Origin: Anaerolineae bacterium
Lineage (GTDB): Bacteria; Chloroflexota; Anaerolineae; Anaerolineales; Villigracilaceae
Reading direction: 5' to 3'
Assembly: GCA_003524705.1 (NCBI GenBank)
Contig: DQGV01000056.1
Location: 1 to 10,141 of the forward strand
Length of the DNA: 10,141 bases
Part shown: positions 2,172 to 10,141 of the stretch, one piece after another
Layout of the letters: each line of letters begins with the position of its first letter
Numbering within the stretch: position 1 is the stretch's first letter
Made by a program: the position numbers and the translations under genes
Notes under the pieces: model-generated
Seen by the model: only the letters and a program-made list of their open reading frames with translations
Database searches by the model: none
What the model was told of the DNA's origin: nothing

Positions 2172-2208
2172 ATAAAAATGAAAGGATTGCTTAAGCAATC
2201 CTTTCATT
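2172..2208 (-). terminator. ftsK intrinsic terminator (32-nt perfect palindrome overlapping the stop codon)
   Basis: Bases 2177-2208 form a 14-bp perfect stem with a TTAA loop; the whole 32 nt is palindromic. On the minus strand it is followed by T-rich sequence (TTTTATAA). The first two bases of the ftsK TAA stop codon (2207-2209, minus) lie in the stem, so termination is placed right at the end of the gene. It separates ftsK from the mutase/meaB unit. Confidence 0.85.
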
Positions 2209-4476
2209 AATCATCTCCAATTTTTGGTTGTTGATTTCCGTAATCCAACACCTGCCGCATTTGTGTTGCCCCTTCCGGTGGACCGACAATCTTTTTATCT
2301 TCCATCATATCCACGATACGAGATGCACGTGTGTATCCGATTCTTAATCTTCTTTGTAACATGGATACTGAAGCGCGTCCTTCTTTGCGGATAATTGATA
2401 CTGCTTCGTCAAACAGTGGGTCACCTTCAACTTTTTCTGTCGCTTCCCATAATGGTGCTTGTTTCATCGGCACATTTTCAGGGATAGATTCTGCCGGCGT
2501 AGAACCCGCCACTGCATACGCACTTCCACCACCTGCTTGGATTTTCCAAAAGTCTACAAGTTTATGAATCTCATGGTCAGAGACGAAGACACCTTGCAAA
2601 CGAACCGGCGCTGGCGCATCGGGTGCTTGATATAACATATCACCACGCCCAAGCAATCTTTCAGCACCCGGTTGGTCAAGGATGACACGGCTATCTGTAT
2701 TCGATGCAACTGCAAACGCAATACGAGCAGGGAAGTTGGCTTTGATTAAACCTGTCACTACATCCACAGAGGGTCTTTGTGTAGCAAGAATCATGTGAAT
2801 GCCAGTAGCACGAGCAAGTTGCGCCAAACGTGTAATCGTTTTTTCTGTTTCATCTGGAGCAATCATCATCAAATCTGCTAGTTCGTCAATGACTACGACT
2901 AGATAAGGCAATTTCTTTTGACCTTGTAATTTCATCTTGGCGTTGTAGTCAATGATATTACGCGAGCCAACTTGTGCAAACATGTGATAACGCTTGTCCA
3001 TTTCGCGCGTCATCCATTGCAATGCGCCGATGACTCTATCCATTTCTACAACGACGGGTCCAAGTAAATGTGGAACACCGTTATAACCAGTTAACTCAAC
3101 ACGCTTGGGGTCAACGAGAACCAAACGCAAATCATCTGGTGTGTTGTAAAGCAACATACAAGTCAATATTGCATTGACACACACTGATTTACCGGAACCG
3201 GTCGTCCCTGCAATTAACATGTGTGGCATGTTTTCAATACTAGCAATAGACGGCAGACCTGCTACATCACGACCTAATGCAAAACTTAAAGGTCGTTTGT
3301 AATTTTTATAGACTTCACTTTCTAAAATATCACGCAAAGCGACCATTGCCATTTCATCATTTGGCACTTCGATACCGACATAGCTATGTCCCGGCACCGG
3401 CGCTTGGATTCTGATTCGTGGTGCGGCGAGTGCTAATGCTAAATCATCAGATAATGATGCGATTTTGCTGACGCGGACTCTTGTTCTTACTCCCCCTCTG
3501 GTTTCGACGAATAACGGCTCAACACCAAATTGGGTAATGCTAGGTCCACTACTGATGGCGACAACTTGGGCAGGTGCACCAAATGAAGCAAGTGTTTCTT
3601 CGATTAATCTAGCACGTTGCTTAATGATTTCATCATTCATAGATGGAGCATTGCCTGAATCTAAAATGTCTGCCATGTCCGGTAATTTCCATTCGATGAC
3701 AGTTGCTCCACTGCGGGTTTGAACGGGTTGAACAGGCACGCTGTTAGTTTGTGTTTGCGGAAGTGCAGAAGAATCTATCGGCGTGAATCCATTTGCAGTT
3801 GCTGAATCAGGCAGACCCGAAGTTTGAGGCGCGATGGGTTTATTCAACAGTTGACGAATCTTTATCCATAATGGAGTCAACCAAAAGAAAAGTTCTATGA
3901 CTGGTTTATCTAATGTGACTGCGATGCCGATGATGAGCCATGCTAGCAATGCGATGAATGCGCCGCCTGCGCCAAGTCCTGTCCAAATAAAGCTTTGGAT
4001 TTTTCCACCAATGTACCCACCGCCTAAACCTGTTAATGAAACTGCTTCTAAAATTGTCAACAACCAAAGAAAAAGAATAACACTACCTACAGCTCTTTCT
4101 ATGGATAATGGCGGAATGCGTTCAATTTTGCGAATGACAAGCCACACACCAAAACCTATAAGTCCAAAAGGAAGAATGTATGCACCCCAACCAAAAATTT
4201 GTAAGAACTTAGTAATAATCCAACCAATGAATACAGAACGATTGGCAGATATAAAACCTAGAAAAATAATGGCACCAAATGCAATAAGAGCATAGCCAAC
4301 AACATCTAATTTTCTTTCGGGAGATAAACTTTCCCACCATGTGGGTTCGCGGGTGATTGGTGCTTGCGGCTTAGACGCAGATTTATTTTGCGGTAAGCCT
4401 CCTCTTTTGGTTGGGGGAGTTTTGCCGTGATTTTTTTTATTTTTGGGGAAGGTTTTTTTTTGAAGAAGGAAAACAT
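2207..4476 (-). CDS. ftsK: DNA translocase FtsK/SpoIIIE (N-terminal frameshift needed to join ATG 4476 to the main frame)
   Basis: This is a septum-anchored ATP-driven dsDNA motor that clears chromosome ends and dimers at division. The main frame is open from 4483 to 2207. Its 646-codon part from GTG 4147 carries Walker A GTTGSGKS (residues 314-321 from that GTG), Walker B VVVIDEL (417-423), the RGDMLY block (501-506) and a C-terminal winged-helix gamma domain (about 577-635). Two transmembrane helices lie at about 18-38 and 54-79. Upstream of GTG 4147 the same frame encodes two further hydrophobic helices (about 4306-4250 and 4228-4133), completing the usual four-helix FtsK anchor. So GTG 4147 is not the true start. 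No ATG, GTG or TTG occurs in frame between 4483 and 4147. ATG 4476 begins a 56-codon frame ending at 4306 and needs a -1 shift to enter ftsK. The joined product would be 756 aa. The identity of the gene is certain; how it starts is not. Confidence 0.93.
4431..4461 (-). other. Putative -1 frameshift or slippage region in ftsK (A9 and A8 runs)
   Basis: On the minus strand the frame from ATG 4476 reads ATG TTT TCC TTC TTC AAA AAA and then AAA CCT. The A9 run (4453-4461) falls as three whole AAA codons, giving an in-phase A_AAA_AAA heptamer. A second run of eight A (4431-4438) gives another (ATA AAA AAA ATC). A -1 slip at either site puts the ribosome or polymerase into the long ftsK frame. At A9 the joined N-terminus would read MFSFFKKKTFPKNKKN. 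A single missing A in the assembly would look identical. Confidence 0.5.
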
Positions 4477-4482
4477 TTTTTA

Positions 4483-4517
4483 ATTATCAATTGTCAATTG
4501 ATAATTGACAATTAAAA
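4483..4517. repeat. Five degenerate 7-bp repeats forming two alternative hairpins (ftsK leader)
   Basis: In plus-strand phase the units are ATTATCA, ATTGTCA, ATTGATA, ATTGACA, ATTAAAA. Two 11-bp perfect inverted pairs overlap and cannot form together: 4482-4492 with 4496-4506 (loop GTC), and 4489-4499 with 4503-4513 (loop GAT). The block sits between the predicted ftsK -10 box and ATG 4476, so it would form almost the whole 5' leader. No Shine-Dalgarno is visible there. Confidence 0.75.
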
Positions 4518-4520
4518 ATG

Positions 4521-4529
4521 ATTATAGCA
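4521..4529 (-). promoter_or_regulatory. Extended -10 promoter (TGCTATAAT) for ftsK
   Basis: The minus strand reads TGCTATAAT, a consensus TATAAT with the upstream TGn extension that can substitute for a -35 box. No good -35 hexamer is seen at the expected distance. Transcription would begin near 4513, giving a leader of about 37 nt to ATG 4476 that consists of the heptamer repeats. Confidence 0.5.
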
Positions 4530-4547
4530 CAAATGGTCTGTTTTTCA

Positions 4548-5231
4548 TTACCACTGAATTTCAACCGGCGTGCCGACATCTGCCCAATCATATAAAAGTT
4601 GTGACTCGTATGCGCCTAACACCACACACCCGTAAGAAATAGGAACGCCCAAATAACCTGACCATAATTGCGCGCCGCTTGGCAAAATTGGTAAGGCATG
4701 GATTCCGTTTTGCAAACTACCAGCCCAATAAATGCCGAGCCAATTGGGCATCCAAATATTCCATGTGGCACCGTAGGCGTTGGGGATTTTGTTTAGCACG
4801 CTGAAATTGCCGACGCGTGTAGCATTGTTCATACCTGTTGATGCGACGAAACTATAAATTAAAACATCGCCTTCATAAACGTACATGTGCTGGTCAGAAA
4901 TATCTACCAAAATATATTTTCCGCCAGTGTACGTGACGGGTGCTTCTGCTTCATAGACTTGGGCAACGGGCGGAATGTATTCACTTGTGGGTGTATCTAG
5001 GATAATTTCGGCTTGAGCGATTGGTTCTGGCGTATTTGTGGGGATTTGAGTGGGCGTGGATGTGATTGTAGGTAACGGCGTGTAAGTCGGTTTGGAAATT
5101 TCGGCAATGGCAAATGAAATGGATTCTGTTGGGGTGACAATTTGATTGACAGGCAAACTTGGAATATTTGCACACGCAGATATTGCCAATGAAATCAATA
5201 AGAGTTTAAGAAAAATTTTTTTACAAAACAT
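4548..5231 (-). CDS. L,D-transpeptidase (YkuD domain) lipoprotein
   Basis: This surface peptidoglycan cross-linking enzyme of 227 aa would form 3-3 cross-links or attach proteins to the wall. A lipoprotein signal peptide is visible: MFCKKIF, a hydrophobic core, and the lipobox ISAC with Cys20 as the predicted lipidated residue. A Thr/Pro-rich linker follows (about 48-70, PTYTPLPTITSTPT and onward). The YkuD domain starts near 105 (KYILVDISDQHMYVYEGD). Its active site is clear: His178 in GIHALP and Cys202 in SYGCVVLG (199-206), the S-x-G-C motif of the family. No LysM or other wall-binding domain is present. The start ATG 5231 has GGAG 5 nt upstream. It lies downstream of the amidase gene on the same strand, with a 39-bp gap holding a short palindrome. 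Hydrolase next to cross-linker suggests a shared cell-wall remodelling role. Confidence 0.92.
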   Translation of the reverse strand: MFCKKIFLKLLLISLAISACANIPSLPVNQIVTPTESISFAIAEISKPTYTPLPTITSTPTQIPTNTPEPIAQAEIILDTPTSEYIPPVAQVYEAEAPVTYTGGKYILVDISDQHMYVYEGDVLIYSFVASTGMNNATRVGNFSVLNKIPNAYGATWNIWMPNWLGIYWAGSLQNGIHALPILPSGAQLWSGYLGVPISYGCVVLGAYESQLLYDWADVGTPVEIQW

Positions 5232-5240
5232 TTTTACTCC

Positions 5241-5264
5241 GTCATTGCTTGCCTTTGCAATGAC
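5241..5264. repeat. Short palindrome GTCATTGC...GCAATGAC (REP-like)
   Basis: An 8-bp perfect inverted repeat with an 8-nt spacer fills most of the gap between the amidase and transpeptidase genes. There is no T-run on either side, so it is not a standard terminator. Arms of this sequence resemble dispersed repeats ending in 'GTCATTGC' that are common in many bacterial intergenic regions. Whether it is repeated in this genome cannot be seen here. Confidence 0.45.
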
Positions 5265-5270
5265 ATGAAC

Positions 5271-6047
5271 TTACGGCACACTTGGTGGCAAAACACTTTC
5301 ATTATTGATAAAACACAAAATACCTTGAGTCACACCTTCAGCGACCAAATCAGTTTGTTCGGTTAATATTTCTCTATCTAAATTCAAAAATCCTGTTTCG
5401 ATGATGGCTGTAATCGTATTTGGGTCAATTTCAGAAAAGGCGTGATATTCCGTCATATCTGGCGTAATGCTATTGGCATGGAAAAACAAACCCGTTAGGC
5501 TTTGATAACGATTGGTCAAACAAGCCGTCAGACGCTGGGCACGATTAATGTCGCGTGTTTCTAATGAAGCCGCCACTTTGAATCCTGTTGCCGCTTCGTT
5601 GATGTATTCACATGAATCATTATGAATTGAAACCAACGCCACAGCGCGATAACCATTTAAGCGTGTATCAAATTCATTTAACAAATCAACTTGATAGCCT
5701 TTGGCTACTAAACTATCACGCACACGTGATGCAATTTCAAAATTAACTTCTGCTTCGGTTAAATCTACAGCACCATTTTCATCCGTGCAGACTGCGCCTG
5801 AGTCATTGCCCATGTGTCCAGCCACAATGCCGATGCGAAGTTGCGGTTGAGGTGTAAGACCAGTTTCAAATCCAGTTTGAGGCGTGAGCAATGTGCGTAA
5901 TTGTTCTTCTAAGTTGCTGTTGAATAAACTATTGGGCGTCCATGCTGTAAATAGAGTCGCAACTAAAATTGCAATGCCAACTGTGTATAGAAAAATATTA
6001 TTGCTATTACGAGGTTTGCGTGTTCTTTTTTCGTTTGTTGATTCCAT
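5271..6047 (-). CDS. N-acetylmuramoyl-L-alanine amidase (Amidase_3 type), membrane-anchored
   Basis: This zinc-dependent hydrolase of 258 aa would cleave the bond between MurNAc and L-Ala of peptidoglycan. A basic N-terminus (EKRTRKPR) precedes one transmembrane segment (about 18-36), so the catalytic part faces outward. The catalytic domain starts near 71. Expected zinc ligands and catalytic residues are all present: His78 in IVAGHMGNDSGA, Glu98 in DLTEAEVNFEIA, His142 in VSIHNDS, and Glu217 in the terminal IIETGFLN motif. The 'SIHND' replaces the commoner 'SIHAN'. There is no SPOR, AMIN or SH3 domain. The ATG 6047 lies 2 nt after the stop of the upstream nuclease-like gene, with no good Shine-Dalgarno, which points to translational coupling. 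The transpeptidase lipoprotein follows downstream. Confidence 0.9.
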   Translation of the reverse strand: MESTNEKRTRKPRNSNNIFLYTVGIAILVATLFTAWTPNSLFNSNLEEQLRTLLTPQTGFETGLTPQPQLRIGIVAGHMGNDSGAVCTDENGAVDLTEAEVNFEIASRVRDSLVAKGYQVDLLNEFDTRLNGYRAVALVSIHNDSCEYINEAATGFKVAASLETRDINRAQRLTACLTNRYQSLTGLFFHANSITPDMTEYHAFSEIDPNTITAIIETGFLNLDREILTEQTDLVAEGVTQGILCFINNESVLPPSVP

Positions 6048-6049
6048 TT

Positions 6050-7018
6050 TTATATGTTACCAAATAATTTCTCTATCGGTTTTAAATTTGAAACAGGCAC
6101 AAATAAATTTTTAACTCGTGTGGTTTCATATTGAAATGTTTTTGAGTTTGGCAATAATGTTTTCGCCTGATGACCAAATTCTTCATACGAAATAAAGCCA
6201 CATAAGAAAATCTGCATACCATATACCCAAATGTTGCTCCAATCAAATGGCGAGATGATGTGAGATTCTTTTATCGCTTCACATTTGATTCCAAGTCGTG
6301 CATCTGCCACGCGGCGAATGTGTAAGGATGTAATCGAATAAAATGATTCACCACAGGTGACTTTCATCTTCGGTGCAAGACTTATCATTTTTCGCTTCAT
6401 TCTTCGATTTTCATCCTGCCCATTGACCTCGACCATTAACTCCTCTTCAGACTCTGATTTGAGTGTTAAAGTTCCCAGCGGATTCCAATTGGCAGGTTTG
6501 CGCCACGCTTCGGGCATGATGTGTACTAGATAATGTTTTTGATTTTTGGCAATTGCTTTTTGCAAATCGGCTTGTGAGGCGGCGATTAATCCTGTTGCAA
6601 AGGCGAAGATGTATAAATCATTGTAGGAATGACCGTCACTAGCGTGATGGTCAGATGGAACGAGTGCAGGCGCATTTAATAAGATGGATGGATTATGTTT
6701 GATCTCTGAAATTTGATTTCGATTTGAAATAAAAAAAGATTTCACTTGACATCTGTATTTATCTAAAAAAACATCATATCGTTCTGAGTCAGTAAATGGG
6801 CGTGAGGCTTTCACTTCAAATTCAATGTTTTTTGTAGCCAAATAACGCCGAAAAGCAAGTTCAACCGACACGTTCGCAACGGTTCTTCTCAACCTGCTAT
6901 ATAAATTTCCGCCTGCTTTTTCATAAATATATGATAACGAACGCAATGCGTATTCAATTCCACCTTCGGTGAGGTCGGGTGTAAAAGGGAGGTGGAGAAG
7001 ATTGTTTGTTGAGAGCAT
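6050..7018 (-). CDS. Uncharacterised protein with a predicted PD-(D/E)XK nuclease-like core
   Basis: I do not recognise a named family for this 322-aa cytoplasmic-looking protein; it has no signal peptide or membrane helix. Residues 50-95 have the layout of a restriction-endonuclease fold. A helix carries Glu53 (NVSVELAFRRYLATKNIEFE), then come Asp82 in RYDVFL and, after a short turn, Gln91-Val-Lys93 (CQVKSFF). The D...QxK form is typical of Mrr-like nucleases, where Gln replaces the usual Glu or Asp. The rest (about 110-322) matches nothing I can name. It contains a His-rich stretch (SDHHASDGHSYND, 122-134) and several Trp/Pro-rich turns. The ATG at 7018 has no clear Shine-Dalgarno and follows a 7-mer repeat array. 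The stop lies 2 nt before the amidase start, so the two are probably co-translated. No methyltransferase or other restriction partner is nearby. The nuclease reading is a fold-level inference. Confidence 0.6.
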   Translation of the reverse strand: MLSTNNLLHLPFTPDLTEGGIEYALRSLSYIYEKAGGNLYSRLRRTVANVSVELAFRRYLATKNIEFEVKASRPFTDSERYDVFLDKYRCQVKSFFISNRNQISEIKHNPSILLNAPALVPSDHHASDGHSYNDLYIFAFATGLIAASQADLQKAIAKNQKHYLVHIMPEAWRKPANWNPLGTLTLKSESEEELMVEVNGQDENRRMKRKMISLAPKMKVTCGESFYSITSLHIRRVADARLGIKCEAIKESHIISPFDWSNIWVYGMQIFLCGFISYEEFGHQAKTLLPNSKTFQYETTRVKNLFVPVSNLKPIEKLFGNI

Positions 7019-7021
7019 AGT

Positions 7022-7098
7022 TATCAGTAAACAGTAATCAGTTTATTAATCGTAATGCGTAATTCGTATTTCGTAAATCTATAACTCATAACTTGTTA
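7022..7098. repeat. Tandem array of degenerate 7-bp repeats (about 11 units)
   Basis: The gap between the lipoprotein and the nuclease-like gene is in 7-bp phase throughout on the plus strand: TATCAGT, AAACAGT, AATCAGT, TTATTAA, TCGTAAT, GCGTAAT, TCGTATT, TCGTAAA, TCTATAA, CTCATAA, CTTGTTA. At least two sub-families are seen, nnnCAGT and TCGTAAn. The last unit contains the stop codon of the lipoprotein gene (7096-7098, minus). There is no stem-loop terminator in it. Confidence 0.7.
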
Positions 7099-7893
7099 CT
7101 TAATCTCTCGAATCACCAAATCCGAAAATGTGACAATGACTGGCGTACTTCCAACCGAACGGGCGAAGACTCCAATTGTGCCGCTGGGGAAACTTGGGTC
7201 AATGATGCTGAATTGAAATCGTCCGTTTAGGAAGAAGCGAATTTCTTTGCCAACTGCCCAAACTCCCATGCGCACGTTGCCTGGTGCGCCGGGCGGAACA
7301 TCACCACTTGGGTCTGGTCCTTCTAAAACCAAACGATTGCCTGAACTATATCTCTCCACACGGACTGTTCCATTACATGCTAAGGTGTAACGATAATATG
7401 TCGCTGAACTGGCGCGAATCAACATGCCGTAATTATCTTCACCTTTGCATAAACTTGGTTGAGCGGTTAACTCGGCGTAAAAATCTGTCAATATCAAATC
7501 ATGTCGCAGACTCAGCATATACACTTCGCTTTGCGCTGAAAGAATCAAACGATTGTTATTGATACTTGCACTGGCTTGGTTTGATGAGGCAATATCCCAT
7601 ACTGTTTCGTCTGAAAAATCATCTTCCAAAATGATATCGCCAATGTCTGGGCGCATTTCAGGCGTGGGGACTTTTGCATTTTCAGTAGCAGAAAAAGGTT
7701 GAAGTGTAGGCGTGGCTGACGCAGGGAACCAAATTCGCGTCGCGGTAGGAAGCGGGGTTTCTGTCAACATTACAGGTGTGGAGGTGATAAGTAAATTATC
7801 AAGCGAAGAACATGATATTAATAATGTCGTTGCAATGAGGGTGAATGTCTGACGAAGTAATCTGTTGTTAAATAGTGAATTTATTTTTTTCAT
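7096..7893 (-). CDS. Lipoprotein with Thr/Pro-rich linker and C-terminal ConA-like (LamG/DUF1080-like) beta domain
   Basis: A 265-aa exported lipoprotein. The signal peptide is basic (MKKINSLFNNRLLR), then hydrophobic, ending in the lipobox LLISC with Cys28. A Thr/Pro/Ala-rich linker spans about 38-80. From about 90 (ILEDDFSDETVWD) the sequence has the 'DDFSD...W' opening and alternating beta-strand pattern of ConA-like jelly-roll domains. This includes YGMLIRASSATYYRYTLACNG, then VGKEIRFFLNGRFQF, and the closing GTIGVFARSVG. No catalytic residues can be assigned, and such domains often bind carbohydrate. The ATG 7893 has no Shine-Dalgarno. The gene is divergent from the dehydrogenase gene, 47 bp away, and is the first of the minus-strand envelope block. 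Confidence 0.75.
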   Translation of the reverse strand: MKKINSLFNNRLLRQTFTLIATTLLISCSSLDNLLITSTPVMLTETPLPTATRIWFPASATPTLQPFSATENAKVPTPEMRPDIGDIILEDDFSDETVWDIASSNQASASINNNRLILSAQSEVYMLSLRHDLILTDFYAELTAQPSLCKGEDNYGMLIRASSATYYRYTLACNGTVRVERYSSGNRLVLEGPDPSGDVPPGAPGNVRMGVWAVGKEIRFFLNGRFQFSIIDPSFPSGTIGVFARSVGSTPVIVTFSDLVIREIK

Positions 7894-8965: not shown

Positions 8966-10141
8966 ATGATTAAGCAAATATTTGCTATATGGCTTATTTT
9001 GTTGCCAAATTATGTAAATAACTTTAATTTTGAAATAAACGAAAAACTAACAGAACCAATAAAGCTGAATATCTTTGCAAATGAAGTCACTAATATTGAT
9101 TTGATATATCATTTGTCAACGTTTGAGCCATATACTAAAGAATATAGTTTTCAAGTTGTTGAGAATAGACTTGTAGGTGGAGATATTACCTTGCCATTAT
9201 CATTGCTTAGTTCTATTTTACAGAATCTTGATAATTTATACCCTAGTACTAATCCTGTGTATATTGAGAGATGGTCAGATGACTATCCATTTGCTGGTGT
9301 GAAAATTGCACTTAAAGATGAACGTTATATCTTAATTACTTCTCAATCCCAATATGGGCGATTAATACCATGGAATGTTCAAATCTGGCAGGGTAATCCA
9401 GATACTGATGGAAATATTCTTGAAAGTTATATATTATTGCATGAAGATTTTCATAAAGGATTATCGGTCTTTTGGAATAGATTAACGGGTACAAATTTTC
9501 CTAGAGACTATGGAGATGAAGCATTTTGGGAATATTATGAAAAGACCGAAACTGTAGATTTCTTTCGGCTTACTGAAAAGAAGCTATACGGTTCGTCAAT
9601 AAATGTTATAGAGCCATTTTTATCAACACTAAAACAAAATAAAGCAATATCTGAATTGCTTCAGCAAGGCTATTTTGTTTATGATTTAGATTTGGATGTA
9701 ACAGTAACTGTGGAACAAATGCATCCAGTGAGCTATTCAGGCTCTATTGCTTTAATGACCCCAAATAAAAAAGATGTAATAGTATCTACCGTAGAGATTT
9801 ACTTAGAACCGGAAATTTTAGTTAAGACGCCATTAATAAGCACTGAAGTTATTAAGCAAGTAAGTCAGCGTCAAGAATACATTTTCTTGCAGAATGCAGA
9901 AAAACTATTTCCAGATATTGTTTTCCTCTCATACTTTGAAGAAAAGACGGGGTTGCTTAAGATAGATTGCCCAGAAAATCATAGGGCACATCACAGTAAT
10001 TATGGGATTGAAGCCTTTTTATCAGATAATAAAAATTTACCAATTTATTTTTATTATCTGAATAGCCTTAAAGCATGGTCAGTTAATATTGATTTTAATC
10101 GCCAAAACGGTTATTGGGATGATGAACTTGTAAATTTAGTT
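8966..10141 (+). CDS. Unrecognised, probably exported protein, 3' end beyond window
   Basis: The frame is open for 392 codons from ATG 8966 to the last base with no stop, so the C-terminus is missing. GGAG lies 5 nt before the ATG, and the gene starts 14 bp after the dehydrogenase stop, so co-transcription is likely. The N-terminus (MIKQIFAIWLILLPNYVNN) has a short basic end and a hydrophobic stretch, as in a signal peptide or anchor. The rest is rich in Asn, Tyr, Ile and aromatic residues with alternating strand-like segments. I find no nameable domain. An HEDFH string (159-163) resembles a zinc-protease HExxH, but the charged Asp within it and the lack of a clear third ligand make that unreliable. 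Base composition is visibly more AT-rich than in the dehydrogenase gene, and codons end mostly in A or T. This may mark an acquired gene. Function unknown. Confidence 0.7.
   Translation, partial: MIKQIFAIWLILLPNYVNNFNFEINEKLTEPIKLNIFANEVTNIDLIYHLSTFEPYTKEYSFQVVENRLVGGDITLPLSLLSSILQNLDNLYPSTNPVYIERWSDDYPFAGVKIALKDERYILITSQSQYGRLIPWNVQIWQGNPDTDGNILESYILLHEDFHKGLSVFWNRLTGTNFPRDYGDEAFWEYYEKTETVDFFRLTEKKLYGSSINVIEPFLSTLKQNKAISELLQQGYFVYDLDLDVTVTVEQMHPVSYSGSIALMTPNKKDVIVSTVEIYLEPEILVKTPLISTEVIKQVSQRQEYIFLQNAEKLFPDIVFLSYFEEKTGLLKIDCPENHRAHHSNYGIEAFLSDNKNLPIYFYYLNSLKAWSVNIDFNRQNGYWDDELVNLV

What the first reader, a model, noticed from the sequence alone, without database searches (positions are those of the whole stretch)
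4306..4483. ftsK lacks an in-frame start; ATG in another frame is joined via in-phase A_AAA_AAA sites
The long ftsK frame encodes the first two of four membrane helices upstream of its first GTG (4147), yet has no ATG, GTG or TTG before its upstream stop at 4484-4486. The only nearby ATG (4476) opens a 56-codon frame that needs a -1 shift. Within it are an A9 run made of exactly three AAA codons and an A8 run, both matching the classical A_AAA_AAA slippery heptamer in phase. Options are programmed ribosomal frameshifting, transcriptional slippage making a mix of full-length and aborted FtsK, phase variation by homopolymer length, or a one-base assembly error. If real, production of a division motor would depend on slippage.
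Basis: partly seen in the sequence, partly recalled or inferred. Interest (0 to 1): 0.7.

Follow-up and report, generated by a model that had tools for sequence, protein, structure and literature searches.

The report
One-base slip in an ordinary ftsK
The DNA-pump gene ftsK looks out of frame here because a short run of A's near its start is one letter shorter than in its nearest relative, most likely a sequencing slip or a private mutation and not a programmed frameshift.

Summary
In detail: the ftsK frame (4483->2207, minus strand) has no ATG/GTG/TTG before GTG 4147; the ATG at 4476 opens a frame that needs a -1 shift; A9 (4453-4461) and A8 (4431-4438) lie in slippery phase. The frameshifting reading is not supported. 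ATG 4476 is the normal ftsK start, and intact copies exist. A protein 99% identical to the window's (P0001) reads in one frame from MFSFFKKKPSPKNKKNHGK and differs at one residue downstream of the tract. The nearest genome, UBA2317, is also in frame. Of 100 distinct related loci, 97 have an in-frame ATG. The one other case with the same offset, OLB14, comes from an Ion Torrent study, and its otherwise identical twin P0010 is intact. No stimulatory structure was found. A homopolymer error is most likely, a recent private indel next; leaky rescue by slippage is untested. Side finding: the ftsK promoter carries a LexA-like box with variants before recA, uvrA and dnaE.

The parts
2207..4483 (-). 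Open ftsK frame (4TM, alpha, FtsK_SpoIIIE motor and gamma domains); no ATG/GTG/TTG before GTG 4147
4474..4476 (-). ATG, homologous to the in-frame ftsK start of relatives
4306..4476 (-). 56-codon frame opened by that ATG; its first 12 codons encode the same residues as the intact FtsK N-terminus (P0001), the rest is out of frame
4453..4461 (-). A9 run (three in-phase AAA codons); same length in UBA2317 and MAG-271, A10 in OLB14
4440..4444 (-). A5 run; A6 in UBA2317, AAAAAG in MAG-271: the place of the one-base difference
4431..4438 (-). A8 run, same length in UBA2317 and MAG-271
4145..4147 (-). First in-frame GTG of the open frame, inside transmembrane helix 2; not a plausible start
4521..4538 (-). 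Conserved ftsK promoter GACCATTTGTGC-TATAAT: LexA-like operator (inferred) overlapping an extended -10
4477..4520 (-). Variable leader with degenerate 7-base repeats that fold into a hairpin ending just before the ATG

Best explanation
This is an ordinary chromosomal ftsK of an Anaerolineales bacterium (Chloroflexota). It starts at ATG 4476 and in relatives reads in one frame through a lysine-rich N-terminal tail into the four-helix membrane domain. In this contig one of three closely spaced A runs is one base shorter than in the nearest relative, which puts the ATG and the rest of the gene in different frames. Shown: an intact protein 99% identical to the window's and an intact nearest genome exist, and the offset is not conserved. 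Inferred: the shortening is a homopolymer sequencing or assembly error (about two to one over a real, recent, strain-private indel). If real, some full-length FtsK could still be made by unprogrammed slippage at A9 or A8, and a second FtsK-type protein might cover part of the function.
For: P0001 (756 aa, source ENA, cluster of 5 members, 2 contigs) begins MFSFFKKKPSPKNKKNHGK in one frame. It matches the window's open frame at 748 of 755 aligned residues; six of the seven differences (and a one-residue gap) lie in the tract and one lies downstream. UBA2317 (G001, 95%) has the same ATG in frame, with A9 and A8 unchanged and the middle run one longer. Of 133 loci, 8 were set aside as weak and 25 as duplicates; of the 100 left, 97 have an in-frame ATG within 100 codons before helix 1. 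The exceptions are OLB14 (L003), one GTG start (L023) and one masked with N (L115). OLB14 has the same offset, but P0010 matches it at 763 of 770 residues, with all 7 differences inside the tract; the OLB14 record's accession prefix LMZR occurs 3 times in a study sequenced on Ion Torrent PGM whose authors corrected 'persistent frameshifts, common in IonTorrent data' (PMC4821891, passages). 17 of 19 same-genus genomes (G001-G019) hold another FtsK homologue at 43-45% identity.
Against: The window is otherwise clean: 8 of 8 other genes with a UBA2317 counterpart in the two loci compared align in a single segment, and 65 runs of 5-7 identical bases inside the other coding regions and the rest of ftsK leave those frames open. 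That weakens 'error' relative to 'real indel'. The window's reads and platform are unknown, and P0001 is held as protein only, so its run lengths are inferred. A long run at the A9 place (A9, A9, A10) is kept in the three relatives of this small clade whose DNA is held.
Confidence: 0.9

Rival explanations
1. Real, strain-private frameshift allele whose full-length FtsK is rescued by unprogrammed RNA-polymerase slippage at A9/A8 (or by spontaneous ribosomal slipping). This overlaps with the private-indel form of the best explanation.
For: A9 and A8 lie before any stop in the ATG frame, and a slip of the right sign restores the frame at either run. Slippage on runs of 9 A or T is documented in bacteria, and Buchnera and Blochmannia are named among slippage cases (PMC5009743 passages); about 20-25% efficiency was measured at A11 in Citrobacter rodentium tssM (PMC4256274 passages). 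The N-terminal tail is variable among relatives, so junction residues should matter little.
Against: Intact allele in a near-identical protein. No sign of age or conservation. E. coli RNA polymerase is reported to slip less on A than on T runs and to need long A runs (PMC6260861 passages).
Confidence: 0.12
2. Programmed -1 ribosomal frameshifting at A_AAA_AAA makes FtsK from ATG 4476, as in dnaX.
For: In-phase heptamers.
Against: Offset not conserved: 97 of 100 related loci have an in-frame ATG. No significant structure after either run (z -1.44 and -0.44; 21 and 64 of 200 shuffles fold as well). No Shine-Dalgarno-like element upstream of either run by eye. In E. [quoted passage not shown]
Confidence: 0.02
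3. Phase variation: A-run length switches FtsK on and off in the population.
For: Two members of this A-rich clade (window, OLB14) are out of frame while near-identical proteins are intact.
Against: OLB14 comes from Ion Torrent data with known frameshift errors. The altered run is only 5-6 bases. FtsK is not a typical contingency gene (general knowledge).
Confidence: 0.03
4. A non-canonical in-frame start (ATT, ATC, ATA or CTG) is used between 4483 and helix 1.
For: An in-frame ATC codon exists at 4357.
Against: Relatives start at the homologous ATG; after the GAGGAGG at about 4399-4405 I see no start codon at proper spacing in frame (by eye).
Confidence: 0.02

Closest known systems
Homopolymer indel errors in draft metagenome assemblies (for example the Ion Torrent frameshifts described in PMC4821891)
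   Same: One-base length change in an A run in an otherwise intact gene; an intact near-identical protein exists
   Different: The window's sequencing platform is unknown and the rest of the window shows no such error
Transcriptional-slippage rescue of frameshifted genes (Citrobacter tssM, PMC4256274; Buchnera and Blochmannia, named in PMC5009743)
   Same: Long A run in the gene; frame could be restored by a slip
   Different: No RNA or protein evidence here; the disrupted state is not conserved; A9/A8 instead of A11
dnaX-type programmed -1 ribosomal frameshifting
   Same: In-phase A-rich heptamer
   Different: No conserved offset, no significant downstream structure, no upstream Shine-Dalgarno-like element seen; site A_AAA_AAA, not A_AAA_AAG

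Membership tests
Programmed -1 ribosomal frameshifting (dnaX type) | Slippery heptamer X_XXY_YYZ in the zero frame | tested here: met
   A_AAA_AAA in phase in A9 and A8
Programmed -1 ribosomal frameshifting (dnaX type) | Downstream stimulatory stem-loop or pseudoknot | tested here: not met
   z -1.44 and -0.44 for the stretches after A9 and A8; pseudoknots not tested
Programmed -1 ribosomal frameshifting (dnaX type) | Upstream Shine-Dalgarno-like stimulator | tested here: not met
   None seen 5' of either run (by eye)
Programmed -1 ribosomal frameshifting (dnaX type) | Frame offset conserved among relatives | tested here: not met
   97 of 100 distinct loci have an in-frame ATG; near-identical P0001 is intact
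Transcriptional-slippage rescue | A/T run long enough to slip, between start and first stop of the broken frame | tested here: met
   A9 and A8
Transcriptional-slippage rescue | mRNA length heterogeneity at the run and trans-frame protein | not testable with these tools
   No RNA or peptide data
Homopolymer sequencing error | Same gene intact in a near-identical sequence | tested here: met
   P0001: one residue difference outside the tract; protein only
Homopolymer sequencing error | Reads disagree with the assembled run length | not testable with these tools
   Reads not available; own assembly not held
Homopolymer sequencing error | Other run-length errors in the same assembly | tested here: not met
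   8 of 8 other compared genes align in one segment; 65 coding runs of 5-7 bases leave the frames open; only this 10 kb could be looked at

The most novel reading that the evidence does not exclude
In this lineage the N-terminal tail of FtsK is kept as a string of A runs (A9, A6/A5, A8) although A9 runs are scarce in the nearest genome. The window strain then carries a genuine frameshift allele in which all full-length FtsK is made through polymerase or ribosome slippage, giving a reversible, noisy dosage switch on a chromosome-segregation motor that also sits under an SOS-type promoter.
Probability: 0.05. Interest if true: 0.6.

Novelty: not a real feature. Interest (0 to 1): 0.1.

Why it matters
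It shows that the apparent dependence of FtsK on frameshifting is an ordinary one-base difference, and it warns against reading A-run offsets in metagenome contigs as recoding. If the allele were real, it would be a rare test case for how well slippage can sustain a chromosome-segregation protein.

Tried and rejected
Programmed frameshifting: rejected on conservation, structure and site type. Internal GTG 4147 as a start: rejected, because it lies inside helix 2 and relatives start upstream. Non-canonical start after GAGGAGG: no start codon at proper spacing by eye. OLB14 as independent support for a conserved -1 offset: rejected because P0010 is its intact twin and the source study used Ion Torrent. 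L115 looked like a third case without a start, but its region is masked with N. A megablast of window 3700-5300 against phage records found nothing. Literature: (ftsK, ribosomal frameshifting, transcriptional slippage; 172 papers held at least two of the three terms, 10 listed) listed none that by title is about ftsK frameshifting; (LexA, Chloroflexi, SOS response, binding motif, ftsK; 14 papers held at least four terms, 10 listed) listed none that by title reports this box in Anaerolineales. Searches gave listings only, and nothing here rests on them. Tamas 2008 and Wernegreen 2010 were seen only in a reference list and are not held. That E. coli ftsK is dinH and SOS-induced, and the usual anatomy of dnaX frameshifting, are recalled.

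Full report
What is there. The ftsK gene occupies 2207-4483 on the minus strand and encodes the FtsK membrane, alpha, motor and gamma domains. Its open frame begins after a TAA at 4484-4486 and has no ATG, GTG or TTG until GTG 4147. The ATG at 4476 lies in the frame one base off, which ends after 56 codons. GTG 4147 is residue 113 of the open frame, inside helix 2, so it is not a sensible start.

What relatives show. The window's own assembly is not held. The nearest held genome, G001, shares 33% of the window's sampled 31-letter words; its ftsK contig has the same length and ftsK sequence as a contig of the named record Anaerolineales bacterium UBA2317. There the homologous ATG is in frame with ftsK. 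Between the ATG and the lysine tail, the alignment shows identical A9 and A8 lengths and a single one-base length difference in the middle run: A5 in the window (4440-4444), A6 in UBA2317, AAAAAG in MAG-271. The slippery runs are therefore bystanders to the difference.

A near-identical protein. The protein search scored only the 7,999 candidates sharing most words and listed the best 120 of 7,855 hits. Its best hit, P0001, is 99% identical and starts MFSFFKKKPSPKNKKNHGK in one frame. Against the window's open frame it matches 748 of 755 aligned residues. Six of the seven differences, and a one-residue gap, are in the tract near the start, where the window's open frame is not the one that follows the ATG; one difference is downstream. 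P0001 is held only as protein, so its run lengths are inferred from the reading frame.

Breadth. I classified 133 loci (L001-L133). Eight were dropped for weak matches and 25 as duplicates. Of 100 distinct loci, 97 have an in-frame ATG within 100 codons before helix 1, two have only GTG/TTG (OLB14 and L023), and one (L115) is masked with N. The count does not check each ATG for homology: in L025, for example, the ATG lies one codon before the anchor and a GTG further up looks the likelier start. The listing shows the same position and motif (MPLLKPS-like, or M-FFFKKK-like near the window) for most loci of the genus.

The one look-alike. OLB14 (G015, L003/L056) has the same -1 offset with A10, C5 and A9 runs. 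P0010 matches OLB14's open frame at 763 of 770 residues, all 7 differences falling in the tract, and reads in one frame. The OLB14 record's accession prefix (LMZR) occurs 3 times in a study sequenced on Ion Torrent PGM that corrected 'persistent frameshifts, common in IonTorrent data'; the name OLB14 itself does not occur in its text (PMC4821891, passages). I read it as a leftover error that shows how error-prone this tract is.

Mechanism tests. Structures after the two runs are not significant (z -1.44 and -0.44). A third fold that includes the leader is more stable than its shuffles (z -2.49, 4 of 200), but that is a hairpin upstream of the ATG, not a stimulator placed after a slip site. [quoted passage not shown] coli (PMC5009743 passage). 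Programmed frameshifting is therefore unlikely. Slippage at A9 could still leak some full-length protein if the indel is real: slippage on runs of 9 is documented (same review), and 20-25% was measured at A11 (PMC4256274 passages), though E. coli polymerase is reported to need long A runs (PMC6260861 passages). Laboratory drift shows that indels and their bypass both rise with repeat length (PMC3812077, abstract), and selection against slippage-prone runs has been studied across 108 bacterial genomes (PMC1088944, abstract).

Results against my reading. The rest of the window shows no homopolymer damage: 8 of 8 other genes with a UBA2317 counterpart in the two loci compared align in single segments (the gene at 8966 had no match there and was not tested), and 65 coding runs of 5-7 bases leave the frames open. 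This raises the chance that the indel is real. A9 runs are scarce in UBA2317 (27 positions on both strands in 3.6 Mb), while shuffles of the window give a mean of 1.70 per 10 kb, so a run of 9 or 10 A kept in ftsK in the three relatives with DNA is slightly odd. Lysine codons in the window are AAA 123 to AAG 34, which makes three AAA in a row unsurprising locally.

Weighing. I give about 0.9 to 'ordinary ftsK with a non-conserved one-base shortening'; within that, error is roughly twice as likely as a private indel. The slippage-rescue rival (0.12) overlaps with the private-indel form, so the numbers do not add to one.

Side finding. The sequence just upstream, GACCATTTGTGC-TATAAT (4538-4521), or a version with one or two set variations, gives 84 matches in the 143 loci then held, 59 of them distinct by flank. 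With up to 3 mismatches it occurs 8, 9 and 13 times in G001, G057 and G063 (pattern read backwards as control: 3, 1 and 3). I looked at 17 of these loci other than ftsK: 7 carry GAACnnnnGTGC before recA (G001), uvrA (all three genomes) or dnaE (all three); the other 10 precede other genes or no frame of 90 codons. NCBIfam named the three G001 proteins; RecA passes its cut-off, while the UvrA and DnaE pieces, cut to 250 residues, do not; the G057 and G063 copies were named by resemblance. All three genomes have a LexA-type gene (best hits 54-57 bits; the family's control rang in 10 of 14 genomes, archaea included, so weak hits mean little). Before that gene all three carry GAACnnnnGTTC, 81 bases before the frame's start, and AGCACAAATGAGC just after it. 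So ftsK here looks like part of a LexA (SOS) regulon, as recalled for E. coli ftsK/dinH. This is inference from sequence only.

Noticed in passing
window 4521-4538 (minus strand) and L144-L166: The ftsK promoter carries GACCATTTGTGC overlapping TATAAT, found in 59 flank-distinct places in the loci held; close variants (GAACnnnnGTGC) sit before recA, uvrA and dnaE (7 of 17 loci looked at) and related boxes before lexA, suggesting that ftsK is in the SOS regulon.
   Followed up: partly
window 4546/4547: Novel adjacency: the L,D-transpeptidase gene (4548-5231) abuts the ftsK promoter here. In 12 genus genomes searched it is on another contig than ftsK (9) or hundreds of kilobases away (3: G033, G057, G063); G011's ftsK is at a contig edge, so adjacency there is not excluded. 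In UBA2317 and OLB14 a metallo-hydrolase-like and a pfkA-like gene (names by eye) precede ftsK. Rearrangement or chimeric contig.
   Followed up: partly
window 4488-4513 and 7050-7076: Degenerate 7-base repeats (CAATTGA, TCGTAAT) in intergenic spacers; the first folds as a hairpin between promoter and ATG of ftsK, and leaders of some relatives hold other repeats such as CTCTACT. They recall cyanobacterial STRR repeats (from memory).
   Followed up: partly
L003 / L056 (OLB14): OLB14 ftsK is also out of frame with its ATG, with A10/C5/A9 runs, while a near-identical protein (P0010) is intact; probably a leftover Ion Torrent error.
   Followed up: yes
G017 (L014/L089, CFX11): ftsK is split into pieces (query 13-133, 136-200, 202-751), the middle one in a different open frame, in this two-contig, 78% complete assembly; consistent with indel errors.
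   Followed up: no
G001, G011, G015: A9 runs number 27, 44 and 97 positions per genome on both strands, in G001 far fewer than the window's shuffled composition would suggest.
   Followed up: no
window 6050-7018, 7096-7893, 8966-10141: Three genes with no Pfam match at E 0.001; the first two have counterparts in UBA2317 at 96.9% and 99.6% identity.
   Followed up: no
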